From assembly GCF_014204915.1 (NCBI RefSeq), contig NZ_JACHMH010000001.1:7775501-7839500 (forward strand): DNA of 64,000 nucleotides, read 5' to 3'. Numbering within the stretch: position 1 is the first letter of the stretch; each line of letters begins with the position of its first letter. Made by a program: the position numbers and the translations under genes. Positions 26,966 through 58,670 of the stretch are shown piece by piece. Origin of the DNA: Crossiella cryophila. Its GTDB lineage: Bacteria > Actinomycetota > Actinomycetes > Mycobacteriales > Pseudonocardiaceae. The notes under the pieces are model-generated. The model made no database searches, was not told the DNA's origin, and saw nothing but the letters and a program-made list of their open reading frames with translations.

Positions 26966-26984
26966 GCGCAGTATCCAGATGCGT

Positions 26985-44216: not shown

Positions 44217-44759
44217 GTGTCTGACGAGCATGGGTCATGGAAGACGTTCGGCGAGCGGCCGGTCTACGACAACCGGTGGGTCAAGGTCGGGCTGGTCGAC
44301 GTCGAGGCCCCGAACGGGGAGCGCTGGGAGTACCACGTTGTGCACCTCGCGCGGATCGCCATCGCGCTGATCGTGAATGACCGGGATGAAGCGCTGATGC
44401 TGTGGCGCTACCGGTTCCCCACCAAGCAGTGGGGGTACGAACTGCTTGGTGGCATGGTCGACGACGGCGACGATTCGGCGGGGACGGCTGCACGGGAAGC
44501 AGCCGAAGAGAGCGGTTGGCGGCCGGTCGGCGAGGCTGAGCACTTGGTGAGCTTCGAGCCGCTGCCAGGGCAGGTCACTGCGCCGGTCGACGTCTATCTG
44601 TGGCGCGCGGCTGAGTACGTCGGTGAGCCGACCGACACAGAGGAAGTCGGGCGGGTCGAGTGGGTACCGCTGTCCCGGGTGAACGAACTCGCGCAGAAGC
44701 AGCAGCTACTTGGCTCCGGGACGCTGGTGTCCCTGCTCTACTACCTGAACTCACGCTGA
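44217..44759 (+). CDS. NUDIX hydrolase
   Basis: This 180-residue protein has the Nudix box GGMVDDGDDSAGTAAREAAE followed by ESGW, with the expected Glu residues. It resembles ADP-ribose-pyrophosphatase-type enzymes (LMLWRYRFPTKQWGYELLGG). NUDIX genes are a regular part of pSAM2-like AICEs, next to activator genes. GTG 44217 is the start. It converges on and overlaps the XRE/TPR gene by 9 bases. Confidence 0.92.
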   Translation: MSDEHGSWKTFGERPVYDNRWVKVGLVDVEAPNGERWEYHVVHLARIAIALIVNDRDEALMLWRYRFPTKQWGYELLGGMVDDGDDSAGTAAREAAEESGWRPVGEAEHLVSFEPLPGQVTAPVDVYLWRAAEYVGEPTDTEEVGRVEWVPLSRVNELAQKQQLLGSGTLVSLLYYLNSR

Positions 44760-45878: not shown

Positions 45879-45898
45879 GGCAACAGACCCTGATAACG

Positions 45899-45915
45899 GC
45901 ATCTATCTGCGGAAA
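45899..45915 (-). promoter_or_regulatory. Repeated regulatory motif (copy 2) upstream of XRE/TPR gene
   Basis: GCATCTATCTGCGGAAA matches the motif at 42005 with one change. It lies 21 bases upstream of the XRE/TPR start codon on the minus strand, a promoter or operator position. Confidence 0.55.
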
Positions 45916-46052
45916 TAACACGAGCTAACACGGGGGATGTCAACCGCGGCCAGCTCCCGGCAGGCGCGGAGATGCCGTTTCGTTGAGGCATGGCACACGA
46001 GAGCAACGAACTCCGAACGGTCATCGAGACCGACCGGGAAACGGGATTCCGG

Positions 46053-46439
46053 CTAAACGTCACGATTCTCGTCACGGCGTACCAGCTCGGTGATATCCGT
46101 CTGAAGGCCGGCGAGCTGTTCGGTGATCTCCGACAGCCGACGCTCGATCACGGCCAACCGTGCCGACACGGCGTCTTCCATGTCCTCACGCGGCTGGCCC
46201 AGGGCTGGCGGGATGCGACCGTGCAGCACAGCCACCAGGTGCTGAGGGTGCAGCCCGAGCGCCACGGACAGTGCCTCAAGGGTGCGGTCGCTGCGCTTGC
46301 GCTCCACCTTGTGGTTCTGGATTTCGCGGACGATCGCTTGGGAGACCTGCGAGCGTTCAGCCAGTTCGCGTTGTTTCCAGCCGAGCGCGAGGACGCGCTC
46401 GTTGATGGTCCTCGCGACCGCCGCCCAGTCTTCTGTCAC
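46053..46439 (-). CDS. XRE-family regulator with C-terminal coiled coil
   Basis: This 128-residue protein has an N-terminal XRE domain (LGWKQRELAERSQVSQAIVR, EIQNHKVERKRSDRTLEALS) and a C-terminal heptad-like tail (LAVIERRLSEITEQLAGLQT). It begins at GTG 46439 and is divergent from the transfer operon, so it is the best candidate repressor of that operon. Confidence 0.85.
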   Translation of the reverse strand: MTEDWAAVARTINERVLALGWKQRELAERSQVSQAIVREIQNHKVERKRSDRTLEALSVALGLHPQHLVAVLHGRIPPALGQPREDMEDAVSARLAVIERRLSEITEQLAGLQTDITELVRRDENRDV

Positions 46440-46545
46440 CCATTCCTCCGTGGTCCGCCTCAGCGCCGAGATTAGCGCTTGACGCGATTCGGCGGTGCCC
46501 CACTCAGGCGTGCGCCGCGCATTTGGACCACTCTGCGCATTCGCG

Positions 46546-46582
46546 CGACTAAATCAGCTTGTTTTTCTCGCTGAAATCAGCG
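46546..46582. promoter_or_regulatory. Control region of the transfer operon
   Basis: CGACTAAATCAGCTT (46546-46560) repeats the element found at 42883. It is followed by the dyad CGCTGA-AA-TCAGCG (46569-46582). Both lie between the divergent XRE gene and the transfer operon. The shared TCAGC half-site suggests one regulator acts at both control regions. Confidence 0.6.
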
Positions 46583-46606
46583 ATCTGACTTTAAGGACTT
46601 CACCCA

Positions 46607-46801
46607 ATGCAGAAGAAAATGCCCGACGCCGGTGGTCCGGCGTTCTACACGGTGGCCGACGCGGCGTGGATTCTCGGCGTCGACCCCGACCGAGTTCACC
46701 GCGCGATCCGGATCGGCGAGTTGCACGCCGTCCGGCGACGTTCCCGGCTCGTGATCCCTGCCGCCGAACTGCGGCGGGTACTGGCCGGGGGTGCGCGATG
46801 A
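46607..46801 (+). CDS. Excisionase-like helix-turn-helix protein
   Basis: This 64-residue protein reads FYTVADAAWILGVDPDRVHR then AIRIGELHAVRRRSRLVIPA, the MerR-like winged helix of excisionases and small DNA-binding proteins. It is first in a chain of genes that overlap by 4 bases each. It may assist the integrase in excision or control the operon. Confidence 0.8.
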   Translation: MQKKMPDAGGPAFYTVADAAWILGVDPDRVHRAIRIGELHAVRRRSRLVIPAAELRRVLAGGAR

Positions 46802-47166
46802 CCGAGCACAAGTACACGGAGATGGCCGCTGAGCTGGACGTGTTCGCATCGCTGGCGGACGACGAACTGTCTGAGGCGGTCCGGCGCGCGGGTTCATGTG
46901 GCTGGCTGTACACCAGCGGCGGGATGCCGGAGTGGACCGGAGACGACCGGGCCGATCGGGAGCTGGCAGCGCCGATCTGTGCCGCCTGCCCTGTCCAGCG
47001 GGAGTGCCTGGAGTCGGAGTTTCGGACTCACGGCTATGCCCTGTCTGGGGTGTGGGGTCCGCTGGCCGAGGACGATCGGCGGGCGGTGTTCCTGCGGTGG
47101 CTGGACCGTCGTGACGGCACCGTGGTCCCCGACCGCGATGACGCCGAGTTCGGCGGTCAGCCATGA
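46798..47166 (+). CDS. WhiB-like iron-sulfur protein
   Basis: This 122-residue protein has the four-Cys WhiB pattern: SCGWLY, then ICAACPVQREC, followed by GVWGPLAEDDRR in the GVWGG position. WhiB-like proteins hold a 4Fe-4S cluster and act as transcription co-regulators. ATG 46798 overlaps the excisionase-like stop, and its stop overlaps the next gene. Confidence 0.9.
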   Translation: MTEHKYTEMAAELDVFASLADDELSEAVRRAGSCGWLYTSGGMPEWTGDDRADRELAAPICAACPVQRECLESEFRTHGYALSGVWGPLAEDDRRAVFLRWLDRRDGTVVPDRDDAEFGGQP

Positions 47167-47513
47167 CCGGGCTGAGCGTGACACCGCAACTGGCAGTGGT
47201 CGGGCTGGCCGTGCTGGTCATCCTGGTGTGGTTGTGGCGGGCGTCGATCCGTCGGACGCGGGCGAAGGCTGAGGCGGCGCGCTCCGGTGTCCGGCTGTTC
47301 TCGTTGGCAGGCCGAACGGTCGCCGGTGCTCTGCTGATCTCCGGGATGCAGTGGCTTGCGCTGACCCACCCGGACAGCACCGTCGTGGCGAAGGTGGCCG
47401 CGCTGGTGGTGCCCGCGCTGTTCGCCTCCTGGGTACTGGTGCGGGCGTTGACCGTGACCGCCGTGGATGACCGGTCCCACCGTCGTGAACGCCGGGGTGG
47501 TGGGCAGCGATGA
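47163..47513 (+). CDS. Small membrane protein of the transfer operon
   Basis: This 116-residue protein has three hydrophobic segments (LAVVGLAVLVILVWLW, VAGALLISGMQWLAL, VAALVVPALFASWVLV) separated by Arg-rich turns, and a basic C-terminus. Position and topology fit a spread (Spd)-type protein used in intramycelial plasmid spreading, but no family was recognised. Confidence 0.78.
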   Translation: MTGLSVTPQLAVVGLAVLVILVWLWRASIRRTRAKAEAARSGVRLFSLAGRTVAGALLISGMQWLALTHPDSTVVAKVAALVVPALFASWVLVRALTVTAVDDRSHRRERRGGGQR

Positions 47514-48409
47514 CCACGGATCAGGAACGGATGCCGCTGAACCGGGCGCAACGGCTTGCCCGGGAGGCCGCCGGGGCGGCTGAGGTGCGCGCGTACCAGA
47601 CACATCCGGATGTGGCGGCGTTGCGCGTGGAACAGGTCCGCAGTCAGGTGGACCTGTTGTGCTGGGCCGGAATCGTGCTCGGGTTGGCGTTCACGATGAC
47701 CAACGTTCAGCAGTTCGCCGCAGCCGGTGCGCAGCCCTGGTCACTGCCCTGGCTCGCGGCGTGGCTGCTGGACCCCACGGTGTCGCTGGTGTTGCTGGCG
47801 ATCCTGCGGGCCGAACAGCTCACCGCCCGCTACCAGGTCCGGACTGGCCGGTGGGTGCGGCGGGCGAAGTGGTTCACCCTGGCGGCCACGTACGTGATGA
47901 ACACCTGGGCGTCCTACGCGGCCGGTTCGCTGTCCGGGATCGTGCTGCACTCGGTGCCGCCGCTGGTCGTGTTCGTGGCCGCTGAGGCGATCACCGACCT
48001 GCGGGACAAGCTCACCGCGACCGTCACGGCCGCGTACACCCACGCGGCGGCCGTGAACGGCGGTGCTGTCATGAACGGCCCGGACCTGGCGGGGGCCGTT
48101 CATGAACGGCCCGCCGCACCAGCTCCGGGCGGTTCCCGGTCGGCAGGTTCGGCGCGGGGTCGGCGCACGCTGTTCGGTGACTACCTGGCCGAGGCTCGAA
48201 CGGCGTGGACACCGGGGGTGGCGGTGACGCCCGCGTGGGTCCGTCAGGTCACCGACTGCTCACGCGGCTTGTCCTCCCGGATCGCCGCCGCGCTCACGGC
48301 CGAACTGGAGACCCTCGGGTCTGCGGGGACGGTCGGCGAACCGGCGACCGTGCCCACAGTGGACGAACGGCCCGCGCGCGGGTTGCGTCGGGGTGGTGGT
48401 CTCCGATGA
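47510..48409 (+). CDS. DUF2637/Spd-like membrane protein
   Basis: This 299-residue protein has about four membrane helices (LLCWAGIVLGLAFTMTNVQQ, LDPTVSLVLLAIL, FTLAATYVMNTWASYAAGSL, PPLVVFVAAEAITDL) as in DUF2637 proteins of actinomycete plasmids. A C-terminal cytoplasmic part may contain an HTH (VTPAWVRQVTDCSRGLSSRI). It overlaps the genes on both sides. It is likely involved in transfer or spreading. Confidence 0.82.
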   Translation: MTTDQERMPLNRAQRLAREAAGAAEVRAYQTHPDVAALRVEQVRSQVDLLCWAGIVLGLAFTMTNVQQFAAAGAQPWSLPWLAAWLLDPTVSLVLLAILRAEQLTARYQVRTGRWVRRAKWFTLAATYVMNTWASYAAGSLSGIVLHSVPPLVVFVAAEAITDLRDKLTATVTAAYTHAAAVNGGAVMNGPDLAGAVHERPAAPAPGGSRSAGSARGRRTLFGDYLAEARTAWTPGVAVTPAWVRQVTDCSRGLSSRIAAALTAELETLGSAGTVGEPATVPTVDERPARGLRRGGGLR

Positions 48410-50718
48410 CGCGTCGGGAGCTGGTCCGCAAGGTGTTCGACGCGGAGATCGTGGATGAAGAAACCGTTGCGCCACAATGTAAGGAGGCCACCGCGGAACG
48501 GTCGCCGGCGGCCCGTGTGATCCGTTCCGCGGTGCGGGCGGTGGCTAGTCACGAAGCCGTGGTCCGGGCACGGTCGGTGCTGGCCTACCGGCTACGCAAG
48601 GCACCCCGTGACCTCGGCCGCCTGGTGTGGTTCCTGGTGCGTGGTGTGGGGCGCTGGAGCGGGAAGGCGTGGCGGTGGGCTTCCTATGCCGACCTGCGGG
48701 CCGATGCCCGCGCTGCGCGGCTCTCGGGGGACGCCGACGCGCGGCGTACCGCTCAGGAGTTGATCCGCGCCGATGCCCGCGCCCGCTGGGCCAAGCTCGG
48801 CATCTTCTTGCGCCGCACGGTGATCACCGCTGCGGTGGTGATCGTCCTGTTGGTGTTGCTCGCGTTGCTTGATCTGGTGGCCGACCGGGCGGAGATGCCC
48901 GGATGGCTGCGGGCGGTCTACGAGGTGCGCGACGCGATCGCCGCCGGGGTGGGCGTGGTGCGGGCGTGGCTGCCCTGGCTGGCCGTGGTCGGGGTGATCG
49001 GGGCGGCGCTCTGGGAGGGCCGGGACCGTAGCCCGGGTGCGGGGTGGCTGACCCGCCCGGACCGGGACGACGCTGACTCATGGGTGGACGAGCGGATGGT
49101 CTCCCGTGCCCTGGCCCATCTGGGGATCGCGCCCCTGAACGCCTTCCTCAAGAACGGCGGCGAACTCGTCTACACCGTCGCGGCCCGCAAGGACGGGGAC
49201 GGCACCTACGCACAAGTCCGGTTGCCGCTCGGCGTGACGGCCGCGATGGTGACCGACCGGCGCAAGGTGCTGGCGGCCAACCTCGGGCGGGCCGCACTGG
49301 AGACCTGGCCAACCACAGGTGAAGAAGACGGAGTACTGGACCTGTGGGTTGCCGACAAGGGCACCCTGTCCGGCGGTGCCGGTGACTGGCCGCTGCTGCA
49401 TGACGGGTTCGTCGACGTGTTCGACGGGGTGCCGTTCGGGCTGTCCCAGCGAGGGCTGGTGATCAACGCTCCGCTGTTCGAGTCGAACTGGCTGGTCGGT
49501 GGGCGGCCAGGCCAAGGCAAGACCAACGTCCTTCGGGTGCTGATGTTGGGCGCGGCACTGGACCCGACCGCAGAGCTATGGGCGTACGTCATGGGCGAGA
49601 GTCCCGATTTCGAGCCCCTAGCGCCGCGCCTGAGCCGCTATCGGGTCGGGATGGATGACTCGGTGCCCGCTGACGCCGTACGGGCGTTGGAGGAGCTTCT
49701 GAAGGAGATGGAGCGGCGCGGCACAGTCCTCGGTGAACAGCCGGGGCAGCCCCCGAAGGTGTCGCGCAGGCTGGCCGACAAGCCCGGGTTGGGCCTGCAT
49801 CCGTTGATCATGAGTATCGACGAGTGTCACGAACTGTTCCAGCACCCCCGCTACGGCAAGCAGGCTGCGGACCTCGCGGTCCGGTTGATCAAGCGTGGCC
49901 GCAAGTACGGGATCATTCTGCTGTTGGCCACACAGTCGCCCACCAAAGACAGCATTCCCAAGGAAATCACCCGCAACATCTCCTGTGGCGTGGCCTTCGC
50001 CGTGGCCGATCACGTTGCGAATGACGGTCTTCTCGGAGCGGGGAAGTACCGGGCCGGTGTCCGAGCAACCGAGCTACGGATGAAGACCGACCGGGGAACC
50101 TGTGTCGCGGTAGGCGTGAGCGACAACGCCTTCGAACTCATCCGCACCTTCTACGTGCCCTTTGAGGACGGGGCCGACATGGTCACGCCCGTTGTCACCC
50201 GCGCCATGGCGCACCGCGCCGAACACCGTCCCGCACTGTCCACACACGACATACCCCGGGAGATCGAGGCCGCACCGGTTGACCACCTGGCCGACATTGA
50301 CCGGGTGATCGGCGGCGAACCGCGCGTGCGGACACAAACCGTGCTCGCCCGCCTGGCCGGGCACAACCCCACCGAGTACGAACCGTGGACCGCGCGTGAC
50401 CTCCGGTCGGTGTTGGACGAACACGGCGTTCCACCGCGCAAGTCCGACGGCGCGATGGTTGTCCGGGCCGACGACGTGGCCGAGGCCATCACCCGCCGCA
50501 CCGACAGGGACGAGGCCAGGGAGCCGTCAGGGAACCAGGGAGTTTCCCCTGTGCCCTCCCTGCCCCCGGCTCCCTCGCCTGATCAGGGCGAACAGTCGAC
50601 AGGGAGGCGAACCGGCGCGGCCTGTGACACCCCCGAACACCCCCTGGAACAGGGGTCGGCGGACACGGTGTCCGGCTCCCTCCCTGACATGGACGGGGGT
50701 GGTGGCCACGGCGACTGA
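48406..50718 (+). CDS. traB: TraB/FtsK-SpoIIIE conjugal DNA translocase
   Basis: This 770-residue motor has two N-terminal membrane helices (VITAAVVIVLLVLLALLDLV, LPWLAVVGVIGAALW) and an FtsK-type ATPase with Walker A GGRPGQGKTN, Walker B-like LIMSIDECHELF and LLLATQSPTKDSIPKEITRN. The C-terminal tail ends with a likely winged-helix part (LARLAGHNPTEYEPWTARDL) that in TraB proteins recognises short repeats, followed by a low-complexity tail. A single such protein transfers double-stranded DNA between mycelia. ATG 48406 overlaps the preceding stop. Confidence 0.93.
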   Translation: MTRRELVRKVFDAEIVDEETVAPQCKEATAERSPAARVIRSAVRAVASHEAVVRARSVLAYRLRKAPRDLGRLVWFLVRGVGRWSGKAWRWASYADLRADARAARLSGDADARRTAQELIRADARARWAKLGIFLRRTVITAAVVIVLLVLLALLDLVADRAEMPGWLRAVYEVRDAIAAGVGVVRAWLPWLAVVGVIGAALWEGRDRSPGAGWLTRPDRDDADSWVDERMVSRALAHLGIAPLNAFLKNGGELVYTVAARKDGDGTYAQVRLPLGVTAAMVTDRRKVLAANLGRAALETWPTTGEEDGVLDLWVADKGTLSGGAGDWPLLHDGFVDVFDGVPFGLSQRGLVINAPLFESNWLVGGRPGQGKTNVLRVLMLGAALDPTAELWAYVMGESPDFEPLAPRLSRYRVGMDDSVPADAVRALEELLKEMERRGTVLGEQPGQPPKVSRRLADKPGLGLHPLIMSIDECHELFQHPRYGKQAADLAVRLIKRGRKYGIILLLATQSPTKDSIPKEITRNISCGVAFAVADHVANDGLLGAGKYRAGVRATELRMKTDRGTCVAVGVSDNAFELIRTFYVPFEDGADMVTPVVTRAMAHRAEHRPALSTHDIPREIEAAPVDHLADIDRVIGGEPRVRTQTVLARLAGHNPTEYEPWTARDLRSVLDEHGVPPRKSDGAMVVRADDVAEAITRRTDRDEAREPSGNQGVSPVPSLPPAPSPDQGEQSTGRRTGAACDTPEHPLEQGSADTVSGSLPDMDGGGGHGD

Positions 50719-50782
50719 CCCACCACCGACCGCCCTCACGTCGACCCGCGACCAAGGAAGCAGCAATGATCAACAAGTCGGA

Positions 50783-51037
50783 GTGTCGGAACCTGATCAG
50801 GAGGAGCCGCCGCAGCGCGGGACACGGTCGGTCGCCGCCCGCACCGCTTGTGAACGTGGGAGGCCCGGTTCCCCGGTCGGCACCGGAACGGGCGCACAGA
50901 TACACGCCGGGCGCGCTGCTGTGCCTACCCCAGAGGAGTGGGCGCAAGAACAGTTGAAGAACGCGCCGCCACGGTCCCCAGCGTGGGCGCGTGCCGTGGC
51001 GGCCATTTACGGTCTGGACAGCCCACAGGAGCGGTAG
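50783..51037 (+). CDS. Small conserved-looking protein after traB
   Basis: This frame encodes up to 84 residues ending VPTPEEWAQEQLKNAPPRSP then AWARAVAAIYGLDSPQER, a tail typical of small AICE proteins. The start is uncertain: GTG 50783 is used here, but the good ribosome site AAGGAAG (50755-50761) fits ATG 50766 in another frame. A frameshift or a short overlapping leader is possible. A terminator follows 11 bases after the stop. Confidence 0.55.
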   Translation: MSEPDQEEPPQRGTRSVAARTACERGRPGSPVGTGTGAQIHAGRAAVPTPEEWAQEQLKNAPPRSPAWARAVAAIYGLDSPQER

Positions 51038-51048
51038 ACTCAACCGAT

Positions 51049-51087
51049 AGCAAAGAGGCCCTGGCAGTCTGCCAGGGCCTCTTTGCT
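51049..51087. terminator. Strong bidirectional terminator between transfer operon and integrase
   Basis: An 18-bp perfect stem (51049-51066 with 51070-51087) begins AGCAAAGAGG and has the 3-base loop GTC. The stem ends in CTCTTTGCT on one side and its complement on the other, so it can stop transcription from both convergent genes. Confidence 0.93.
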
Positions 51088-51101
51088 ATGACTACGCGGC
51101 T

Positions 51102-52646
51102 TTATGTGTCTCGCCGAAATACGGGTATGAGCTGGTCCGGGTGGAACCGAACGCCCTTACCGGCAGACTGGATCACAACAGCGGTTAGGCTCTTGGCAAT
51201 AGCAGCCTGTTTCTGTTCCATCGTGAATTCCGGGCTGTCCCACTCCTTAGCCAGGTCGACTACGAAGTTTCGGCGCGCGTCCTGCCGCGCATTGTATCGA
51301 TGTTGCTCGCGGCGGAGTTCGGCCACTTTCGCCTCCATGCGCGCAAGGCTGGGAAAATGGCGCTCTGCGGAGAATTCACCTGACTCGTACCGACGGATAG
51401 ACTCCTCGATTCGAGCAATATAGCCTTCAAGTTCTTTTTCTTTCGACCACGGCGGCAGTTCCTCCACTTTGCGAGACTCGATTCGCTGCTGGTCTGCGAT
51501 GACCAGGGCCTTAATGTATTCGTCGATCGGTTCGGCCACGCGCCCAATTCCGCTACAGCCCCCGGCCCCTTTAGCCTGACACCGATAGATCGGAATCATT
51601 CTCTTGGTGCGCGGGTCGCGACGGGCTGTCCCGATCATCCGGGCGTTGCACTTGCCGCATCGCACGAACGGCGACAAGAGGTAGATGGTTCGGTAGCCTC
51701 TCCCCTTAGCACCCAACCGGGATTGTTCGCCTCGTGCCGCAGGCGACCATGCCCGCTTGACAGCGTCGTACTGTTCCTCGGTGAGGATCGGTTCCCATTG
51801 TCCCCGTACCGGATTTCCATTCTCATCCCTCAGCACGTCGCCATGATGGGTGACGACTCCACAGATACGCGGGCGAAAAAAGATGCCGCGAATGGTGGCC
51901 GCAAGCCACGGCACGCCGGTGACCGTCTTGATCCCGCGCTTGTTCCATTGCTGCGCAAGGATCAAGGGGCTGACGCCAGCAAGAATACGCGGAACAGCCT
52001 CCTTGATATGGGCGGACTCCCGCTTGTTCAGCGTAAGGCGGTCTTTGCGCCATCCAAACGGGCGCATTCGGCCGCCGTGATTCTTGCCCGCGTACGCGGC
52101 CCGCCGCTTCCCGTCCACTACGCGCCGCGAGGTGTTCCGGGACTCGGAATTGCGCTGGTTCACCAGGCTGCGCGCGGAATCAATACCAGCGTCCGACGAC
52201 AGATCGATGTTCCCGGTCATGCTGACGACATACACGCCGTACAACTCGACCACATCAATCAGGTCTTCCAAGATGCGCGGATCGCGTGTCGCACGGTCGA
52301 TATCCACAACCGCAAGTGCGTTACATTCACCGCGACGCAATGCGGTCAGGATCGCTTCCCAGTCAGGCCGGACCACCCGATAGCCGAACGTGCCATCCGG
52401 CAACTTGACACGCTTTCGCCTGAATGAAGAAACATTCGGCTCAGGCACTTCACGTTCGATTCGTCCGCCAATGCCCTTGACGAACTTACGAAGATCACTC
52501 AACTGGTGATCCACTTGACCCTCATCGTCCGCACCGCGCCCGGACGGTACCTTGGACTCGCGGGCCGACAGTGCCCAAACTAGCTGGTCAGGGTCCCGCT
52601 CGATCAGCGTCCGACCCCGCTCCCGACGTGGCGGCGTGGTAGTCAT
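51102..52646 (-). CDS. Large serine recombinase (integrase)
   Basis: This 514-residue integrase has an N-terminal resolvase domain (LVWALSARESKVPSG with the catalytic Ser, ALAVVDIDRATRDPRILEDL). A recombinase domain follows (RRAAYAGKNHGGRMRPFGWR, GVPWLAATIRGIFFRPRICG), then a zinc ribbon (CGKCNARM and a later C-x-C pair) and a coiled coil (LEGYIARIEESIRRYESGEF). It starts at ATG 52646, 33 bases from the crossover site, so attP lies next to the gene as in phage integrases of this class. In the integrated state it is downstream of the host alkC-lysR promoter. Confidence 0.94.
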   Translation of the reverse strand: MTTTPPRRERGRTLIERDPDQLVWALSARESKVPSGRGADDEGQVDHQLSDLRKFVKGIGGRIEREVPEPNVSSFRRKRVKLPDGTFGYRVVRPDWEAILTALRRGECNALAVVDIDRATRDPRILEDLIDVVELYGVYVVSMTGNIDLSSDAGIDSARSLVNQRNSESRNTSRRVVDGKRRAAYAGKNHGGRMRPFGWRKDRLTLNKRESAHIKEAVPRILAGVSPLILAQQWNKRGIKTVTGVPWLAATIRGIFFRPRICGVVTHHGDVLRDENGNPVRGQWEPILTEEQYDAVKRAWSPAARGEQSRLGAKGRGYRTIYLLSPFVRCGKCNARMIGTARRDPRTKRMIPIYRCQAKGAGGCSGIGRVAEPIDEYIKALVIADQQRIESRKVEELPPWSKEKELEGYIARIEESIRRYESGEFSAERHFPSLARMEAKVAELRREQHRYNARQDARRNFVVDLAKEWDSPEFTMEQKQAAIAKSLTAVVIQSAGKGVRFHPDQLIPVFRRDT

Positions 52647-52658
52647 GAACCCGAGTAT

Positions 52659-52680
52659 GCAGTAAGAGATCCGTAGCTAC
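52659..52680. other. attR: element-lysR junction
   Basis: The arm GCAGTAAGA (52659-52667) is followed by 11 bases, then the crossover AC (52679-52680; GT on the minus strand), then lysR sequence starting CGCGACGAAG. The arm-to-crossover distance equals that at attL. Reconstructed attP is therefore symmetric around the dinucleotide. Confidence 0.85.
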
Positions 52681-52719
52681 CGCGACGAAGTAGCGCAGCT
52701 TGCGCAGGTCGACGTCCAT
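52681..52719 (-). pseudogene. LysR-family regulator, 5' fragment (13 codons)
   Basis: The minus strand reads ATG then MDVDLRKLRYFVA, the start of an LTTR DNA-binding domain, directly after a GGAGGTG ribosome site. It ends at the integration crossover. The continuation is at 41970 and below. It lies 22 bases after the AlkC-like gene stop, so alkC and lysR were probably co-transcribed. Confidence 0.9.
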
Positions 52720-52741
52720 GCCACCTCCCGCGCCGAAGGTA

Positions 52742-53839
52742 TCAGCCGGTGAGCCGGAAGGCGGTCCGGCCGGAGGCGGCGCCGTTGACCTGCACCTCGA
52801 TCTCGTGCTCGCCGGGGTAGTACACGCGGGTGCTGATGACCTTGAAGGAGTGCCTGCGGGAGAAGGTGATCCGCTCTCCCGGTGCGAGTACGCAGGTGGT
52901 CAGCTTGAACACCTTGGGGGTGCGTTTGCCGTTGGCCTTGAGGTGGTGCACCACGTAGTCCACCGCCAGGGTGGCCGGGTTCGCGCCGGTGTTCTCCAGG
53001 CGCACCTCGAAGGGCAGTTCGGCGCCGATGGCGACGGTGCGTCCGGCCAGCTCCGGCCCGTGCACGATGACCCCGGCCGCGGGGGCGAAACCCAGTAGCG
53101 CCAAGGCTTCCGGGTGGCCCTTCTTGATCAGTGTGCGCAGTGCGTGCCGGACCAGCCGGGGCGTGTGCTCGTCCGGTTCGGCCAGCCAGCGGGCCGCGGT
53201 CGCCACCACCAGGTCGCCCTCGGCGCGGCTGAGGTCGTTGAGGTGGTTGGCCACCGAGCGGCGCACGTACTCGCTCTCGTCCCGGTACAGCGCGTCCAGG
53301 ATCGGGATCGTGCACTCCGGGCGGTCCAGGATGGGCCGGACCTTGCGTGCCCACGGCAGGTGCGCCCTGGTGCCCTCGCTGGCCAGCCTGCGCACGTGCT
53401 CGTCCGGATCCCCGGTCCAGGTCTGGATGATCGGCAGCGCCCGGTCCAGGTCGGCGGCGAGCAGCGGGCGGATGGCGAACTCGGCGGTCAGTCGCGGGGT
53501 CAGCGCGGCGAGCAGGTGCAGGGCCTCGGCGATGGCGGGCGGGTCCTGGGCGAGGGCACGTGCGGAGACGGCCTCGGTGACCGGCCAGACCAGCCAGCCG
53601 GTGAACGCCGGATCGCCCAGGGCGGCCCGGAATTGTCGGTCCAGGCTGGGATAGTCGCCGGGCAGGTCGGCCAGCAGCGCGTCCTTGAGCAGGTCGCTGC
53701 GCTCCCGCAGGCTCAGCCCTGCCAGGGATTTGGCCGCGCGGCGCAGCGCGGGCAGCCGGGATCCGGGTGCGATCCGGGCGATGCCCCGGAGAAGGTGGGC
53801 GGCGACGTCAGGGCCGAGCAGCTCGTCCGCGGTGGGCAT
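52742..53839 (-). CDS. DNA alkylation repair protein (AlkC/AlkD-like HEAT-repeat family)
   Basis: This 365-residue protein consists of HEAT-like helical repeats (TWTGDPDEHVRRLASEGTRA, LYRDESEYVRRSVANHLNDL with the typical RRSVANHLND) followed by an immunoglobulin-like beta domain (ELPFEVRLENTGANPATLAV, RVYYPGEHEIEVQVNGAASG). This matches AlkC-type repair proteins that remove alkylated bases. The extra C-terminal domain is a known variation. It starts at ATG 53839 and shares a divergent promoter with the LLM oxidoreductase. Confidence 0.88.
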   Translation of the reverse strand: MPTADELLGPDVAAHLLRGIARIAPGSRLPALRRAAKSLAGLSLRERSDLLKDALLADLPGDYPSLDRQFRAALGDPAFTGWLVWPVTEAVSARALAQDPPAIAEALHLLAALTPRLTAEFAIRPLLAADLDRALPIIQTWTGDPDEHVRRLASEGTRAHLPWARKVRPILDRPECTIPILDALYRDESEYVRRSVANHLNDLSRAEGDLVVATAARWLAEPDEHTPRLVRHALRTLIKKGHPEALALLGFAPAAGVIVHGPELAGRTVAIGAELPFEVRLENTGANPATLAVDYVVHHLKANGKRTPKVFKLTTCVLAPGERITFSRRHSFKVISTRVYYPGEHEIEVQVNGAASGRTAFRLTG

Positions 53840-53856
53840 GCGACTCCCGTTCCAGG

Positions 53857-53887
53857 TGCTATGTTTGCTACACAGTGGACTATAGCA
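53857..53887. promoter_or_regulatory. Inverted repeat between alkC-like and LLM genes
   Basis: TGCTA (53866-53870) and TAGCA (53883-53887) form a dyad, with a further TGCTATG at 53857. The region is the only control space for both divergent genes. Significance is modest. Confidence 0.4.
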
Positions 53888-53906
53888 GCACCTCAAGGAG
53901 GATTCG

Positions 53907-54746
53907 GTGACCGCTCGACTCGGCACGCACGGCGTGTGGCTGGCCCCGCAGCACACCCCTTCGCTGACCAGGTACGTCCAGGAGGCGGAGGACCTCGGCT
54001 ACGGCGCCGCCTGGATCGGCCACGGCCTGGCCGCCCTGGGCGAACTCGAGGAGCACGAGGCGCTGCTGGCCGCGACCAGCACGATCACCGTGGCCAGCGC
54101 GATCGTGAACATGTGGACCAACGAGCCCGAGGCGGTGGCCCGCGGCTTCCACCGGATCGCCGACCGCCACGGCGACCGGTTCCTGCTCGGCGTCGGCGTC
54201 GGCCACCCCGAGGCGGTGGCGGCCTACCAGAAGCCCTACGCCAAGGTCGTGGAGTACCTGGACCGCCTGGACGAGGCCGGGGTGCCCCGGAAGTCGATCG
54301 TGCTGGCCGCGCTCGGGCCGAAAACCCTGAAGCTGGCCGGGGAACGCACCCTCGGCGCGGCCCCGTACCTGATGCCGACCGCGCACACCGCGCAGGCGCG
54401 CGAGCTGGTCGGCGACGGGCTGCTGGTGCCCGAGCAGACGCTGGTGGTGGAGGCCGATCCGGTGCTGGCCAGGGCCGCCGCGCGGGAGTTCCTCGACCTG
54501 TACCTGGGGCTGCGCAACTACATGGGCACGCTGGTCAAGCACGGGCTGACCGAGCAGGAGGTGGCCCGGCCGGGCAGTGACCGGATGATCGACCTGGTGG
54601 TGCCCTTCGGTACTCCCGAGCAGCTGGCGCAGCGGCTGGCCGAGCAGGTCAAGGCTGGTGCGGACCACGTCGGTATCCAGGTGGTGACCAGGGACGCCGG
54701 CGATCCGATGCCGGGCTACCGGGCCCTGGCCAAGGCGTTGTGGTGA
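53907..54746 (+). CDS. LLM-class F420-dependent oxidoreductase (TIGR03620-like)
   Basis: This 279-residue luciferase-like TIM-barrel protein has YVQEAEDLGYGAAWIGHGLA, VASAIVNMWTNEPEAVARGF, FLLGVGVGHPEAV and APYLMPTAHTAQARELVG. Actinobacterial members use cofactor F420. GTG 53907 has the strong ribosome site AAGGAGG. The substrate is unknown. Its location divergent from a DNA-alkylation repair gene may indicate a detoxification role, which is only an inference. Confidence 0.88.
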   Translation: MTARLGTHGVWLAPQHTPSLTRYVQEAEDLGYGAAWIGHGLAALGELEEHEALLAATSTITVASAIVNMWTNEPEAVARGFHRIADRHGDRFLLGVGVGHPEAVAAYQKPYAKVVEYLDRLDEAGVPRKSIVLAALGPKTLKLAGERTLGAAPYLMPTAHTAQARELVGDGLLVPEQTLVVEADPVLARAAAREFLDLYLGLRNYMGTLVKHGLTEQEVARPGSDRMIDLVVPFGTPEQLAQRLAEQVKAGADHVGIQVVTRDAGDPMPGYRALAKALW

Positions 54747-54750
54747 GCGG

Positions 54751-55185
54751 TCAGTAGCTGCTGACCGCCCCCGCGCCCAGCGACAGATGGTGCGCGACCA
54801 GGTCCAGGACCCGGTTCAGCCGGGCCACCTCGTGGTTGAACACGGCGAAACGCAGCGACCCCTGGCGGGCGCGGCGGGCGAAGAGCCGGGTCTGGTGCAC
54901 CACGAACCGGGCCGGGCCGACCGCGCTGTCGGTGGACAGCCCGCCGCTCTCCCTGGCCAGCACCGACTCGATCCGGTCGGCGAGCTGGTCGGCCTTGCGT
55001 GCCTGGGCGGCGGCCAGTTCCTGCAGGGTGCTCGGCGCGCTGCGCTCGGCCGCCGGCAACAGCGGCTCGAACCGGTCACGCCCGGAGAGTTCGGCCCACA
55101 GCATCACCCCTAGGGCCTGGTTGGCCACCCGGAGCACGGACGCGTGTTGGCCACGTGGCGACCCTCCGTTGACTTCTGGCGTCAC
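54751..55185 (-). CDS. Hypothetical helical protein
   Basis: This 144-residue protein is mostly alpha-helical (LQELAAAQARKADQLADRIE, FNHEVARLNRVLDLVAHHLS) with no recognised family. It converges with the LLM gene, 4 bases apart. The frame has normal codon composition for the region. The start at 55185 is not supported by a clear ribosome site. Confidence 0.6.
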   Translation of the reverse strand: MTPEVNGGSPRGQHASVLRVANQALGVMLWAELSGRDRFEPLLPAAERSAPSTLQELAAAQARKADQLADRIESVLARESGGLSTDSAVGPARFVVHQTRLFARRARQGSLRFAVFNHEVARLNRVLDLVAHHLSLGAGAVSSY

Positions 55186-55379
55186 TCCGACGGGTTAACC
55201 GTTGCTCCGATACGCCAAACTCACCCGCCGCCGAAAGATCCATAACGCCGCTACGACCGGCCGCGTCCGTTCGCTCACCCCGGCGTGTTCGCGCAGCTCA
55301 CCGGGGTGGCGATCGTGGTCGCGGAACTGCGCGACCGGCAGAAACATCACCGGATGGAGTGCGTTTAGGGCTGGCCCGT

Positions 55380-55757
55380 TCAGCTGATCGGCGCCAGGTA
55401 CACCCACGCCCCGTCGACGCGCTCGAACCGGCTGTTCTCGTGCAGCCGGTCGTCCTTGTCCTGGTAGCGGTAGTGCGCGTTGAACTCGACCGTGCCCTCC
55501 TGGTGGAACAGCCCGCCGCCGGTGGCGCCGAGGATCTCCAGGTGGGTCCAGCGCAGGTCGGTGTCGAAGTCGACCTCGACCGGGCGGGTCCTCGGGTGCC
55601 AGCTGCGCAACAGGTACGCCTCGTCGCGGAGCGCGTAGGCGGTGAACCGGGAGCGCATCAGCAGTTCGGCGGTGGCGGCGGCGCGTTCGCCGCGGTGCAG
55701 CGCGCCGCAGCAGTCCGGGTAGGACGTGGGCAGGCCGCAGGGACAGGATTTCGCCAT
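55380..55757 (-). CDS. ychJ: YchJ/UPF0225-family protein with SEC-C motif
   Basis: This 125-residue protein starts MAKSCPCGLPTSYPDCCGAL, the Cys-rich metal-binding segment of this family. It continues AELLMRSRFTAYALRDEAYL and VEFNAHYRYQDKDDRLHENS with a nuclear-transport-factor-2-like fold. The cellular role is unknown. It is divergent from the methyltransferase gene. The 194-bp stretch upstream toward 55186 shows no feature. Confidence 0.92.
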   Translation of the reverse strand: MAKSCPCGLPTSYPDCCGALHRGERAAATAELLMRSRFTAYALRDEAYLLRSWHPRTRPVEVDFDTDLRWTHLEILGATGGGLFHQEGTVEFNAHYRYQDKDDRLHENSRFERVDGAWVYLAPIS

Positions 55758-55813
55758 GGCGTCATTGTCCGCAGCGGTGGCCCGGTGGTGGCAACCGGGC
55801 CGATACTGACCGC

Positions 55814-56641
55814 ATGGACCGCGAGAAGGTCGACCTCACCGGTGCCCCGGCGACCATGCTGGCCACCCTCTACAGCAAGGCGGTGGACTCGCGGGCGCCC
55901 GATTCGGTGCTGCACGACGAGACCGCGGCGCGCGCGGTGGACCGGATCGAGTACGACTTCAGCCGCACCGGCCTGCGCGAACGCGACGGGATCTCGGCGG
56001 TCGTGCGCTCCAAGGAGTTCGACCGCCGCGCCCAGGCCGTGCTGGACCGGCACGCCGAGCTGACCGTGCTGCACCTGGGCTGCGGCCTCGATACCCGGGT
56101 CTACCGCCTGGACCCGCCGTCGACGGTGGCCTGGTACGACATCGACTACCCCGAGGTCATCGAGCTGCGTCGCCGGCTCTACCCGGAGCGGCCGGGCCTG
56201 CGGATGATCGGCTCCTCGGTCACCGATCCGGTTCTGCTGGCCGACATCCCCGGTGACCGGCCGGTGCTGGTGATCATGGAGGGCGTGACGCTGTACCTGC
56301 GCACGGCCGAGGGGCTGGCCACCTTCCGGCGCGTGGTCGAGCACTTCCCGGCGGGCACGCTGATCTTCGACGGGTACAGCTCGGCCGGGATCTGGGTGCA
56401 GCAGCGCACCGGGGTGGTCAAGGCGTCGGGGTCCCGGCTGGAGTGGGCGATCGACGATCCCGGGGAGCTGGCGCGAGAGGTGCCGGGGCTGGTGTTCGAC
56501 CAGGAGTGGTGGTTCCCCGGTCCGGCGGATCTTCGCGCGCACTACCCGTGGGCCCAGCGGCAGGTGTTGCGGGCGTTGTTCGCCTCGCCGTTCAAACGAC
56601 TTGGCCGCGGTTTGACCTATCACTTCGGGAGTGCGTCATGA
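55814..56641 (+). CDS. Leucine-carboxyl-methyltransferase-type protein (PPM1/TcmP-like)
   Basis: This 275-residue SAM-dependent methyltransferase has TVLHLGCGLDTRVYRLDPPS (motif I), AWYDIDYPEVIELRRRLYPE and LVIMEGVTLYLRTAEG, all typical of the O-methyltransferase family related to TcmP. Members methylate carboxyl groups in secondary metabolism or protein C-termini. Its stop overlaps the TPR gene start by 4 bases. Confidence 0.9.
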   Translation: MDREKVDLTGAPATMLATLYSKAVDSRAPDSVLHDETAARAVDRIEYDFSRTGLRERDGISAVVRSKEFDRRAQAVLDRHAELTVLHLGCGLDTRVYRLDPPSTVAWYDIDYPEVIELRRRLYPERPGLRMIGSSVTDPVLLADIPGDRPVLVIMEGVTLYLRTAEGLATFRRVVEHFPAGTLIFDGYSSAGIWVQQRTGVVKASGSRLEWAIDDPGELAREVPGLVFDQEWWFPGPADLRAHYPWAQRQVLRALFASPFKRLGRGLTYHFGSAS

Positions 56642-57117
56642 CCGATCCGGAATGGGAGGGGCGCCTCGCGGCGACCTGGGCTCAGCGGTACACAGTGGAC
56701 GGTCGGGAGCTGGTGGGGCGGGTCGAGGATCTGGCCGCCGAACTTCCGCCGTGCAGTTCGGTGGCGGCGTTCGAGCGGGCTTGTTCCTGGGATGCGGCTG
56801 GGCATGGTGAGCGGGCGGTTCCGTTGTATCGGGAGGCTTTGGCGCGGGGGCTGGATGAGCATCGGCGGCGGCGGGCGGTGATCCAGCTGGCTGGTTCGTT
56901 GCGGCGGTTGGGTGAGGCGGAGGAGAGCGTGCGGCTGCTCACGGCTGAGCGGGAGCGGGCTTCGGATGAGTTGGATGACGCGGTGCGGGCTTTTCTGGCG
57001 CTGGCGTTGGCTGATTGTGGGCGGGATCGGGAGGCGCTGGCGGTGGCCATGGAGACGTTGGCGCCGCATGTTCCTTGCTATCAGCGGGCGTTGAGCAGTT
57101 ACGCCCGGCAGCTCTGA
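56638..57117 (+). CDS. Tetratricopeptide repeat protein
   Basis: This 159-residue TPR protein has units FERACSWDAAGHGERAVPLY, IQLAGSLRRLGEAEESVRLL and FLALALADCGRDREALAVAM. It resembles the TPR_5-type small proteins. ATG 56638 overlaps the methyltransferase stop, so the two may function together, possibly with the TPR protein as a partner. Confidence 0.88.
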   Translation: MTDPEWEGRLAATWAQRYTVDGRELVGRVEDLAAELPPCSSVAAFERACSWDAAGHGERAVPLYREALARGLDEHRRRRAVIQLAGSLRRLGEAEESVRLLTAERERASDELDDAVRAFLALALADCGRDREALAVAMETLAPHVPCYQRALSSYARQL

Positions 57118-57138
57118 TCTTTGGTCTCGGGTGCGCGT

Positions 57139-57182
57139 GTTGGCCGTTGTTGTACGGCGTGTTGGCCGGTGTGGGGCACGAG
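57139..57182 (+). repeat. 22-bp repeat, left pair (forward)
   Basis: A full unit GTTGGCCGTTGTTGTAC plus 5 spacer bases starts at 57139. A decayed unit, GTTGGCCGGTGTGGGGC, starts at 57161, exactly 22 bp later. They use the same orientation as the right-hand forward array. Confidence 0.8.
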
Positions 57183-57275
57183 CGAAGATCAAGAGCGTCC
57201 TCGCCGGACGGGCAGAAATCAAAGGATGGGGGGGAAAGTCAAGAACAAGAGCAAAGAAGAAGAGCAGTGCTCGTA

Positions 57276-57428
57276 CGGTTCCCCCATCCCCGTCAGCCCT
57301 CCGATACCAAACCACATCCCGGCAAGCAGCCCGGTTGCGTTTGTGTTGACTTGGCGGCGGTTTGTGTTGCGGGGCTGCTTGCCGGGATGTGGTGTGTCCT
57401 CTCCAGGCTGACGGGGATGGGGGAACCG
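57276..57428. repeat. 153-nt two-part inverted repeat (long hairpin)
   Basis: The outer arms (57276-57298 and 57406-57428) pair over 23 bp without a mismatch, and the inner arms (57312-57332 and 57372-57392) pair over 21 bp without a mismatch. They are separated by a symmetric 13 x 13 internal loop. The 39-base terminal loop contains GTTTGTGTTG twice. Such a structure could be a MITE-like element, a structured RNA or an attenuating hairpin. Confidence 0.9.
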
Positions 57429-57467
57429 CTTGGGGAGTGTTGAAAAGCCACCCCGGCCGCCTGTCCT

Positions 57468-57480
57468 CGGGCTTCGCCCG
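57468..57480. repeat. Small hairpin CGGGCTTCGCCCG, copy 1
   Basis: A 5-bp GC stem with a TTC loop (UUCG-type cap) lies between the long hairpin and the inverted array. An identical copy starts exactly 50 bp later at 57518. Confidence 0.85.
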
Positions 57481-57517
57481 CACGCGACGTGTGGGAACCG
57501 CCTAGCCGCAGCGTTCC

Positions 57518-57530
57518 CGGGCTTCGCCCG
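57518..57530. repeat. Small hairpin CGGGCTTCGCCCG, copy 2
   Basis: This is an identical copy of the 57468 hairpin, 15 bases before the first reverse 22-bp unit. Confidence 0.85.
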
Positions 57531-57544
57531 CCTGCCTGGTTGGC

Positions 57545-57605
57545 GTCCCACAACGGCCAACGTGGTGTACCACAACGGCCAACACTCGGTACGACAACGG
57601 CCAAC
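57545..57605 (-). repeat. 22-bp repeat array, three units in reverse orientation
   Basis: Units start at 57545, 57567 and 57589 (period 22). On the minus strand they read GTTGGCCGTTGTGGGAC, GTTGGCCGTTGTGGTAC and GTTGGCCGTTGTCGTAC. They face the forward array at 57636 across a 30-bp spacer. Confidence 0.92.
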
Positions 57606-57635
57606 ACGCGCGGAGGGTTGAAGCCCTGCCGGCGT

Positions 57636-57701
57636 GTTGGCCGTTCTTGTACCTAGTGTTGGCCGTTCTTGTACGCCTTGTTGGCCGTTGTTGTACGGGG
57701 G
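57636..57701 (+). repeat. 22-bp repeat array, three units in forward orientation
   Basis: Units start at 57636, 57658 and 57680 (period 22): GTTGGCCGTTCTTGTAC twice and GTTGGCCGTTGTTGTAC once, each with 5 variable bases. Together with the reverse array this makes a 157-bp inverted structure. Confidence 0.93.
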
Positions 57702-57725
57702 TGGCGAGGTTTTCGGGGCTGGGGG

Positions 57726-58670
57726 TTATGGGAAGGCGCGTAGGGGGAGGCGGTAGGCGACTCGGCGGGCGGAGACTCGGAGGCCTAGGGCGACCAGGGC
57801 CTGCCACAGGACTCGGTCTCGGGTTTCGGTCAGTTCCACCAGGAGGAGTTCGGGGTGTCGCTGGCGTAGTTCGCGGACCGCGTGGCTGATCAGCGCGGCC
57901 AGTTCCAGGGGGAAGGCGCCGTGGTGGTGGACTCGGGCGATGACCGCCTTGACGCCGTCGCAGACGACGTTGAGCTGGGCCAGGACCTCGCCGGTGCCGG
58001 TGCGGAGGTCGGCGCGCAGGTCGGGGTCCAGGGCGGCCAGGTCCAGGCGGATGTCTTCCGGGGTGTGCGGGTGGGTGGTGCTGGCGGTGTGGAGTTCGGC
58101 GTAGCGCTGGAGTTCGTCGCTGGTGGGAGCGACTGTGCTGCAGCGGGTGCGGGCGGTGGGGATGTCGGCGGGGGGCTGCCAGAACTGGAGGCTGGGGATG
58201 AGCCAGCGGCGGGACAGTTCGCGGTGTTCGGTGGCGCCCAGGGCCTGGGCCAGCTGGTAGTCGATCTCGTCGTCGGTGCTGGACCACAGCAGGGCGGTGC
58301 GGTCGCGGTCCCTGGCCAGGTTCGCGGCGGCGTCGACCAGGGTGGCCAGCAGGGCCAGTTCCTGGTCGGTGAGGCCGAGGAAGAGCGGGAAGCCGTTGGC
58401 GAGCTGGTCGGCCTCGCGTTCGGCCAGGGTCCAGTGCACGGTGGCCACGGGGGCCTCGTCCACGAGCACGGCCCAGCCCACGACCTGGTCCTCGTCCTTG
58501 GCGACCAGGGTGGCCAGCAGGCCGGGCACCGGGTCGGCTTCGAGGGGGTCGAGGCCCGCGGTGCGGCGCAACTCGGCCCGCAGGGCGGCGGGCAGGGCCG
58601 GGTCGGTGCTGGATTCGACGGTGTAGCGGCTCCAGGCGGCGACGGCGTGTTCGATGGTGCTGGTGTTCAC
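57726..58670 (-). CDS. GNAT-like protein, function unknown
   Basis: This 314-residue protein has two possible acyltransferase-like halves: VVGWAVLVDEAPVATVHWTL near residue 60 and GTGEVLAQLNVVCDGVKAVI near 235. The final helix-strand is LRQRHPELLLVELTETRDRV. The acetyl-CoA loop is not clear, so the assignment is tentative. It starts at ATG 58670 and is preceded by the 146-bp divergent control region. Confidence 0.6.
   Translation of the reverse strand: MNTSTIEHAVAAWSRYTVESSTDPALPAALRAELRRTAGLDPLEADPVPGLLATLVAKDEDQVVGWAVLVDEAPVATVHWTLAEREADQLANGFPLFLGLTDQELALLATLVDAAANLARDRDRTALLWSSTDDEIDYQLAQALGATEHRELSRRWLIPSLQFWQPPADIPTARTRCSTVAPTSDELQRYAELHTASTTHPHTPEDIRLDLAALDPDLRADLRTGTGEVLAQLNVVCDGVKAVIARVHHHGAFPLELAALISHAVRELRQRHPELLLVELTETRDRVLWQALVALGLRVSARRVAYRLPLRAFP

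What the first reader, a model, noticed from the sequence alone, without database searches (positions are those of the whole stretch)
57118..57725. Two inverted arrays of a 22-bp-period repeat plus a detached pair
GTTGGCCGTTNTNGTAC occurs three times in reverse (57545, 57567, 57589) and three times forward (57636, 57658, 57680), each with exact 22-bp period and 30 bp between arrays. A forward pair (57139, 57161) has the same period 400 bp away. Twenty-two bp is two helical turns, so all sites in an array face the same side of DNA. This is the geometry of iterons or of transposase binding sites at transposon ends, but no initiator or transposase gene is near. The unit is not a multiple of three and is not coding.
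Basis: seen in the sequence. Interest (0 to 1): 0.88.

Follow-up and report, generated by a model that had tools for sequence, protein, structure and literature searches.

The report
REP-like 22-bp arrays at gene ends
The stretch is one copy of a large family of DNA repeats, built from a 17-letter site repeated every 22 letters, that sits right behind the stop codons of neighbouring genes in the soil bacterium Crossiella, looks mobile, and is probably read by a still unknown DNA-binding protein.

Summary
In detail: 17-mer sites lie at the stated places with exact 22-bp steps. The locus is not unique: this Crossiella genome (one 10.06-Mb contig) has 845 such sites (≤1 mismatch; reversed control 0), in roughly 130 places. 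Three of four other Crossiella genomes have about two hundred 22-bp tandem pairs each, with other inner letters; related arrays occur in a few species of one other genus, and in none of 395 genomes sampled outside the family. The arrays lie between genes, mostly convergent ones (31 of 45 regions against 7 of 101 control gaps), close behind stop codons, which are TAA in 25 of 49 cases against 15 of 438 elsewhere. Relatives show empty sites with overlapping stops or a terminator-like hairpin. Variable positions do not co-vary between inverted arms, so each site, not a long hairpin, seems to be kept. Best reading: a mobile REP/BIME-like family of 3'-end elements whose unit is an iteron-like protein site instead of a stem-loop; protein and mover are unknown. 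In two more distant groups the convergent and TAA biases are weak or absent. The segment between the detached pair and the arrays is a second, independent multi-hairpin repeat.

The parts
57139..57155 (+). 22-bp array site, detached left pair, first copy (exact)
   Evidence: 0 mismatches
57161..57177 (+). 22-bp array site, detached left pair, degenerate copy
   Evidence: 3 mismatches, 22 bp after the first
57190..57430 (+). part of a second, independent dispersed repeat (multi-hairpin 'core' element)
   Evidence: 81-92% identical in 35 other G000 loci (all chosen for similarity to this locus); part of a larger element that in G003/G004 occurs mostly without 22-bp arrays
57276..57428 (+). core hairpin, arms 57276-57332 / 57372-57428
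   Evidence: 57-nt arms, 86% complementary; z -10.5; 13 of 50 pairs with two-sided changes
57545..57605 (-). reverse array, three sites (57545, 57567, 57589)
   Evidence: exact 22-bp steps
57606..57635 (.). 30-bp GC-rich near-palindromic centre between the inverted arrays
   Evidence: centres of 20-40 bp in 40 units listed, this one included
57636..57696 (+). forward array, three sites (57636, 57658, 57680)
   Evidence: exact 22-bp steps
57697..57728 (-). C-rich tract plus TAA stop, as read from the right-hand gene (TAACCCCCAGCCCC...)
   Evidence: this end listed; TAA is enriched beside arrays
56638..57117 (+). left flanking gene, tetratricopeptide protein; its stop is 21 bp before the first site
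   Evidence: PF12688 TPR_5, E 9.6e-47
57726..58670 (-). right flanking, convergent gene, 314 aa, no Pfam match at E 0.001; its stop is 29 bp from the last site

Best explanation
The locus is one copy of a dispersed, recently mobile family of REP/BIME-like 3'-end elements of Crossiella. Each element is made of head-to-tail 22-bp arrays of a 17-bp site, often but not always mirrored around a short GC-rich palindrome. Inferred: a sequence-specific DNA-binding protein reads each site separately, contacting GTTGGCCG and GTAC about one helical turn apart, and neighbouring copies line up on one face of the helix because the step is about two turns. Inferred: the elements enter the shared TA/CTAG of overlapping stop codons of convergent genes, so that both genes keep a stop (often a new TAA), and purifying selection removes insertions elsewhere. 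Inferred, less sure: once in place they serve as the boundary between the two converging transcription units, taking the place of the terminator-like hairpin found there in some relatives. Shown: copy number, exact step, position, stop-codon bias, presence/absence between species, absence of arm co-variation. Not shown: the protein, the mover, any effect on transcription.
For: Copy number and control. Exact 22-bp step and centres. Same step with different inner letters in four of five Crossiella genomes: (578, 230, 221, 183 tandem pairs; G003 2; one chance match of the reversed control in 390 genomes). Site profile; of 107 sites with G at position 15, 106 have G at position 13. Arms: identity at variable positions 0.33 against 0.355 shuffled, spacers 0.46 against 0.50, 40 units, so no excess. 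Arrays with one orientation only: 6 of 45 G000 regions, 11 of 13 regions in unselected G002 DNA (degenerate partner sites may be missed there). Convergent location 31 of 45 against 7 of 101 control gaps (p 2e-14), and 9 of 13 against 21 of 209 in unselected G002 (p 2e-6); divergent 1 of 45 against 39 of 101. TAA stops 25 of 49 against 15 of 438 (G000), 22 of 64 against 49 of 716 (G002). Empty sites with overlapping stops, or a terminator-like hairpin, in relatives. CTAG on both sides of a G004 array where G003 has one CTAA. Flanking genes diverse: no Pfam family in more than 3 of 58 proteins. Precedent in REPs, PMC3733652 section 15 (read): in the two species diagrammed most convergent REPs lie within 20 bp of both 3' ends, and the ends of GTAG REPs often supply the stop codon.
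Against: No transposase or binding protein was found; the IS630 family (TA target, recalled) has 0 matches in G000 and G002, and other transposase families were not searched. A duplicated target is clear at one locus only; elsewhere the two ends differ (TAA/TGA mixtures) or nothing matches. TA preference alone cannot place the elements: only 68 of 3229 TA dinucleotides in the sample lie in called stop codons, so selection or a more specific target is needed. In G001 and the other genus the convergent bias is weak or absent (2 of 8; 1 of 8) and TAA is not enriched (0 of 7; 0 of 8). At some loci the whole intergenic region differs between species, so replacement by recombination is as possible as insertion. 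The boundary function has no expression data. G003, close to G004, does almost without the arrays, so they are not essential.
Confidence: 0.55

Rival explanations
1. RNA-level element: the inverted arrays and the core are transcribed and act as long hairpins, i.e. bidirectional terminators or mRNA 3'-end stabilisers.
For: The inverted arrays fold far better than shuffles (z -12.8), and so does the core hairpin (z -10.5), which shows two-sided changes in 13 of 50 pairs. Elements lie close behind stop codons, and some relatives have terminator-like hairpins there (by eye). The array centres are more stable than 95% of shuffles in 19 of 34.
Against: Variable positions and spacers of the two arms agree no more than shuffled arms. 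Some arrays have one orientation only (6 of 45 regions in G000; 11 of 13 in unselected G002, where degenerate partners may be missed). The exact 22-bp step is not needed for pairing.
Confidence: 0.17
2. Non-autonomous transposon (MITE) of a cut-and-paste element: the 22-bp arrays are transposase-binding repeats at its ends, C-rich tracts are its terminal repeats, TA or CTAG is the target; no host function.
For: Presence/absence between species; inverted ends TAACCCCACCC..GGGTGGGGTTA in a G004 copy; TAA enrichment; CTAG on both sides at one G004 locus.
Against: No copy was seen flanking a transposase; in the G000 loci only two gaps of 0.7-6 kb between successive sites contain called genes (0.7 kb with one gene, 4.5 kb with four), and I did not identify those genes. 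IS630-type DDE_3 is absent from G000 and G002. Number, order and orientation of units vary, unlike fixed transposon ends.
Confidence: 0.2
3. Chromosome-architecture sites, like BIME-2 and gyrase: arrays absorb supercoils or anchor a nucleoid protein between converging genes.
For: Convergent location; distances across the centre cluster near 37, 47, 56, 67 and 90 bp, i.e. roughly in helical steps; many copies in both orientations.
Against: G003 has almost none. No exact forward site is listed between 0.30 and 1.74 Mb, so coverage is uneven. The phasing test is weak: the main peak shares ancestry, and the other junction type gives p 0.03 with n = 15 at a period of 10.5.
Confidence: 0.15
4. An ordinary minisatellite grown by slippage, with no protein involved.
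For: Variable copy number per array; some arrays with near-identical units (G291; G001 478552).
Against: The same 22-bp step and the same GTTGGCC..GTAC frame recur at many unlinked places, in both orientations and in four species, while inner letters differ. Position and stop-codon bias.
Confidence: 0.05

Closest known systems
REP sequences and BIMEs (GTAG- and CGTC-tagged families; PMC3733652 passages and section 15, PMC2817692 passages)
   Same: Hundreds of extragenic copies, both orientations, mosaics with other repeats, close to the 3' ends of convergent genes, ends that supply stop codons.
   Different: The unit here is a 17-bp non-palindromic site repeated head-to-tail every 22 bp; [quoted passage not shown] No GTAG/CGTC tag was seen; a REP-associated transposase was not looked for.
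Plasmid iterons (RK2: 17-bp iterons with 22-bp period; recalled, from no call)
   Same: 17-bp site, 22-bp step, sites on one DNA face.
   Different: Roughly 130 chromosomal places and no initiator gene seen beside this one; position tied to 3' ends of genes.
Miniature transposons (MITEs) and Tn7-type ends with about 22-bp transposase sites (recalled, from no call)
   Same: Repeated sites in inverted arrangement, presence/absence between species, inverted C-rich ends in a G004 copy.
   Different: Variable unit number and orientation, no transposase found, ends not fixed.

Membership tests
REP/BIME | High-copy, extragenic, dispersed | tested here: met
   845 sites; 0 array sites inside called genes in the G000 loci (4 in the S99.2 set)
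REP/BIME | Located at 3' ends / between convergent genes, rarely divergent | tested here: met
   31 of 45 convergent, 1 divergent in G000; weaker in G001 (2 of 8 convergent) and g30 (1 of 8)
REP/BIME | Unit is a 20-40-bp palindrome able to form a stem-loop | tested here: not met
   unit is a non-palindromic 17-mer in direct repeats; a palindrome exists only at the level of mirrored arrays and their centre
REP/BIME | GTAG or CGTC tag at one end of the unit | tested here: not met
   the site profile contains no GTAG or CGTC; GTAC occurs instead
REP/BIME | Associated RAYT (Y1) transposase | not tested
MITE | Insertion polymorphism with an empty target in relatives | tested here: met
MITE | Fixed-length target-site duplication | tested here: inconclusive
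   CTAG on both sides at one G004 locus; TA only or nothing clear at others
MITE | Parent transposase in the genome | tested here: inconclusive
   IS630 DDE_3 absent from G000 and G002; other families not searched
Iteron replication origin | Single or few arrays next to an initiator gene | tested here: not met
   copy number; no initiator family among 10 proteins of window 44217-58670
Rfam RNA family | Match above a curated threshold | tested here: not met
   none of the 12 listed matches in window 56900-57900 reaches its gathering score; the lowest E-values are microRNA-precursor models

The most novel reading that the evidence does not exclude
A protein-dependent boundary system for convergent genes: a dedicated DNA-binding protein polymerises on 22-bp arrays placed exactly between overlapping stop codons, blocks RNA polymerase from both sides, and thereby replaces intrinsic terminators at more than a hundred places. 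The arrays spread as mobile elements and keep their step while their inner recognition letters drift with the protein in each species.
Probability: 0.2. Interest if true: 0.85.

Novelty: new variant of a known kind. Interest (0 to 1): 0.6.

Why it matters
REP-type repeats are common in bacteria and their purpose is still debated. Here is a REP-like family whose unit looks like an iterated protein site instead of a stem-loop. It turns over so fast that one species (G003) of a close pair has almost none while the other (G004) has about 180 tandem pairs. That gives natural occupied and empty alleles at the same convergent gene pairs, so the old question whether such elements act on transcription between convergent genes, or are merely tolerated there, can be tested directly.

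Tried and rejected
Long-hairpin selection on the arms: not supported, because variable positions do not co-vary. Replication iterons: set aside because of copy number. A coding repeat: set aside (22-bp step, no site in a called gene of the G000 loci). A phage or plasmid origin: no match in the phage and plasmid collections or, by exact pattern, in viral contigs. IS630 as mover: absent from G000 and G002, and no array lies in the 16 loci around the IS630 genes of G001, G003 and G004, only isolated hits with two mismatches. A Rho-loading reading (C/A-rich strand always first) was dropped because the first site faces either way: 22 with, 34 against the gene direction, of 56 ends. Replacement of the arrays in G003 by another 22-bp motif: not seen in 92 kb; two period-21/23 arrays there have other sequences. 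Published description: none seen in the listings of eight paper searches (six by topic, one with the genus name, one with the 10-mer GTTGGCCGTT); four of these listings were capped (15 of 25, 15 of 24, 10 of 115 and 8 of 14 papers shown), and most subscription papers are not in that library. Of PMC12306157 and PMC2817692 I saw passages only; of PMC3733652 passages and the whole of section 15. Counts not used: one search counted some intergenic regions twice, so one search replaces it; the same-orientation steps of 22 are so by construction.

Full report
WHAT IS THERE. The window carries eight sites of the motif GTTGGCCGTTNTNGTAC in one cluster and no other array in its 64 kb. Three reverse and three forward sites, each 22 bp apart, are mirrored around a 30-bp centre; a forward pair (one exact, one with three mismatches) ends 367 bp to the left of the reverse array. 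Everything lies between the stop codons of two convergent genes, a tetratricopeptide protein gene ending at 57117 and a 314-aa gene without Pfam match ending at 57726.

IT IS A GENOME-WIDE FAMILY. The window lies in a single 10,058,141-bp contig. The motif with at most one mismatch occurs 432 times forward and 413 times reverse in G000; the reversed pattern never. In loci in hand, 294 sites with at most one mismatch fall in 45 intergenic regions (which uses a slightly wider motif and two more loci), so 845 sites suggest roughly 130 regions; this is a rough estimate, since most loci were chosen for similarity to the window's copy. Of 20 stretches of 20 kb taken evenly along the genome, four hold array units, six units in all; two of the six include the core hairpin. 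Coverage is uneven: no exact forward site is listed between 0.30 and 1.74 Mb.

THE STEP IS THE INVARIANT. Among neighbouring same-orientation sites with at most one mismatch, 171 of 171 steps are exactly 22 bp; degenerate sites show a few steps of 21, 42 or 44. Across 335 array-member sites in G000 (found with up to three mismatches) the letters GTTGGC, G8, T9, T10, T12 and G14 are present in 95-100%, positions 11 and 13 are free, and position 15 is mostly T or G; of 107 sites with G15, 106 have G13. In other Crossiella the frame GTTGGCC-6-GTAC and the step are kept while the inner letters change: GTT, GAT or GGG in G001, GAA, GAT or GTT in G004, CAA, GAA or GTT in G002. The tandem form with at most two mismatches counts 578 in G000, 230 in G001, 221 in G002, 183 in G004 and 2 in G003; among the other 385 genomes of the family only G089 (1), G291 (3) and G299 (1) match, and the reversed control has one match in one genome. 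A looser exact triple pattern, GTTNGCC every 22 bp, finds 241, 80, 65 and 83 in the same four Crossiella genomes, 1 in G003, and in another genus (g30) 41, 48, 13, 3 and 1 in five species plus 2 of different sequence in a sixth (G281); one more genome (G167) has 1; I saw no control match. In 396 genomes drawn from the phylum only G000 itself matches, while the reversed control matches in three of them (4 places). The exact tandem pattern in the 84,980-species collection returned only Crossiella sp. S99.2 (52 stretches); G001 and G004, which do have exact tandem pairs, were not returned, so that collection lacks or withholds some Crossiella. The phage and plasmid collections (blastn, whole locus) and viral contigs (exact patterns) have no match.

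NOT A LONG HAIRPIN BY SELECTION. The mirrored arrays fold extremely well, but that follows from using one motif twice. In 40 mirrored units the two free positions agree between arms in 0.329 of cases against 0.355 in shuffles, and the spacers in 0.458 against 0.502; neither exceeds the shuffles (410 and 488 of 500 reach the observed value). Some arrays have one orientation only: 6 of 45 regions in G000, and 11 of 13 in 660 kb of unselected G002 DNA, where degenerate partner sites may have been missed. The motif therefore seems to be kept site by site. The 20-40-bp centre is palindromic in many units (19 of 34 distinct centres are more stable than 95% of mononucleotide shuffles). Distances across the centre fall at 37, 45-50, 55-57, 67 and 89-90 bp (37 junctions), which looks like helical phasing, but common ancestry of the main peak weakens the test; the opposite junction type gives p 0.03 with n = 15.

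POSITION. In G000 31 of 45 regions are between convergent genes, 13 between genes in line and 1 between divergent genes; control gaps of 100 bp or more are 7, 55 and 39 of 101. In unselected G002 DNA it is 9 of 13 against 21 of 209, and in pattern-selected S99.2 loci 26 of 44. In G004 it is 7 of 7, but some of these loci were picked as counterparts of convergent G000 loci. In G001 it is 2 of 8 and in genus g30 1 of 8. What is shared is nearness to a 3' end: within 60 bp for 47 of 75 ends in G000, 11 of 21 in unselected G002, 11 of 14 in G004, 4 of 9 in G001 and 7 of 9 in g30. Genes here come from a simple codon-usage caller of my own, trained on this genome; it misses some genes, for example the tetratricopeptide gene in the window. 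Of 58 flanking proteins scanned (58 of 84 collected), no Pfam family matches more than three; 25 of 104 matched families were shown.

STOP CODONS. Beside arrays the stop is TAA in 25 of 49 cases in G000 against 15 of 438 elsewhere, in G002 22 of 64 against 49 of 716 (5 of 13 against 37 of 481 in the unselected part), in G004 4 of 11 against 3 of 62, but in G001 0 of 7 and in g30 0 of 8 (a first count, 27 of 56 against 9 of 268, is). The stretch between stop and first site is C-rich, 56% against 38% after other stops, often TAACCCCACCC or TGACCC. In a G004 copy both ends read TAACCCCACCC(A/G)AGTGTTGGCC. TA itself is not confined to stop codons (68 of 3229 TA in the sample), so a TA target alone would not explain the position.

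EMPTY SITES. Ten G000 loci could be compared with relatives, by reading the aligned intergenic stretches. G002 has an array at 9 of 10, each of different make-up (one only degenerate); it is empty at one, where the stops overlap (GTTAGG), though the flanks there are only 71-80% identical. G004 has arrays at 3 of 6 comparable loci, G003 at 0 of 6, G001 at 0 of 4 (one of these carries another hairpin). At the window locus G003 and G004 have overlapping stops and nothing between them. At two loci relatives have a GC-rich terminator-like hairpin instead (G001 at one, G003 and G001 at the other; by eye). At a further G004 locus with flanks 97% and 94% identical to G003, G003 reads GAGAGCTAAGG while G004 has CTAG on both sides of the array, each copy giving one gene its stop. 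G003 and G004 are 93-99% identical in the compared stretches, yet their tandem pairs number 2 against 183: gain or loss is fast.

THE SEGMENT BETWEEN PAIR AND ARRAYS. 57190-57430 belongs to a second repeat family. 40 places (a capped list) are shown in G000 at 84% identity or more for a 361-bp query. The longer copies have several nested hairpins (by eye). In the nine G003 and G004 loci read, eight have the core without 22-bp arrays; the ninth has a single mirrored pair of sites. So two independent families are combined in this genome. The main hairpin shows two-sided changes in 13 of 50 pairs and 9 broken of 950 cells, in 19 of the 49 distinct sequences collected; the structure was predicted on the same alignment and the sequences are related, so this is support, not proof. 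No Rfam family reaches its gathering score.

READING. The closest known kind is the REP/BIME class: in the REP-rich genomes of PMC3733652 repeats lie mostly between convergent or in-line genes, in two species most convergent copies lie within 20 bp of both genes, and ends of GTAG REPs often supply the stop codon (section 15 read). The position and stop-codon behaviour here are alike. [quoted passage not shown] I conclude 'lives like a REP, but is not one by structure', with a protein that reads each site as the likely partner. The partner and the mover are the open points; an IS630-type transposase is not resident in G000 or G002.

Noticed in passing
window 48205-52646: An FtsK/SpoIIIE-type gene and a large serine recombinase gene; this looks like an integrated mobile element, 4.5-9 kb left of the arrays, probably unrelated to them.
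   Followed up: partly
L124 (G001:C1:6880100-6881400): At the place of a G000 array G001 has another inverted repeat (GTGTTCTCG...CGAGAACAC), possibly a further 3'-end repeat family resembling a hairpin of the core element.
   Followed up: no
L207-L209, L242, L243, L245-L247, L251, L252, L254 (genus g30): 22-bp arrays of GCGAGTTYGCCG near 3' ends in species of another genus of the same family; a cousin family with other letters and the same step.
   Followed up: partly
window 57262-57440 and its copies in G003/G004: The distal stem of the core hairpin differs strongly between copies yet stays complementary, which suggests arm-to-arm copying or strong selection for pairing.
   Followed up: partly
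G000:C1 0.40-1.67 Mb: No array or core copy is listed between 398,804 and 1,665,534 (capped lists); the relation to the replication origin was not determined.
   Followed up: no
window 26917-26967 and 27106-27138: Perfect 7-bp tandem repeats (GCTGCGG 7.3 copies, CCGACCG 4.7 copies).
   Followed up: no
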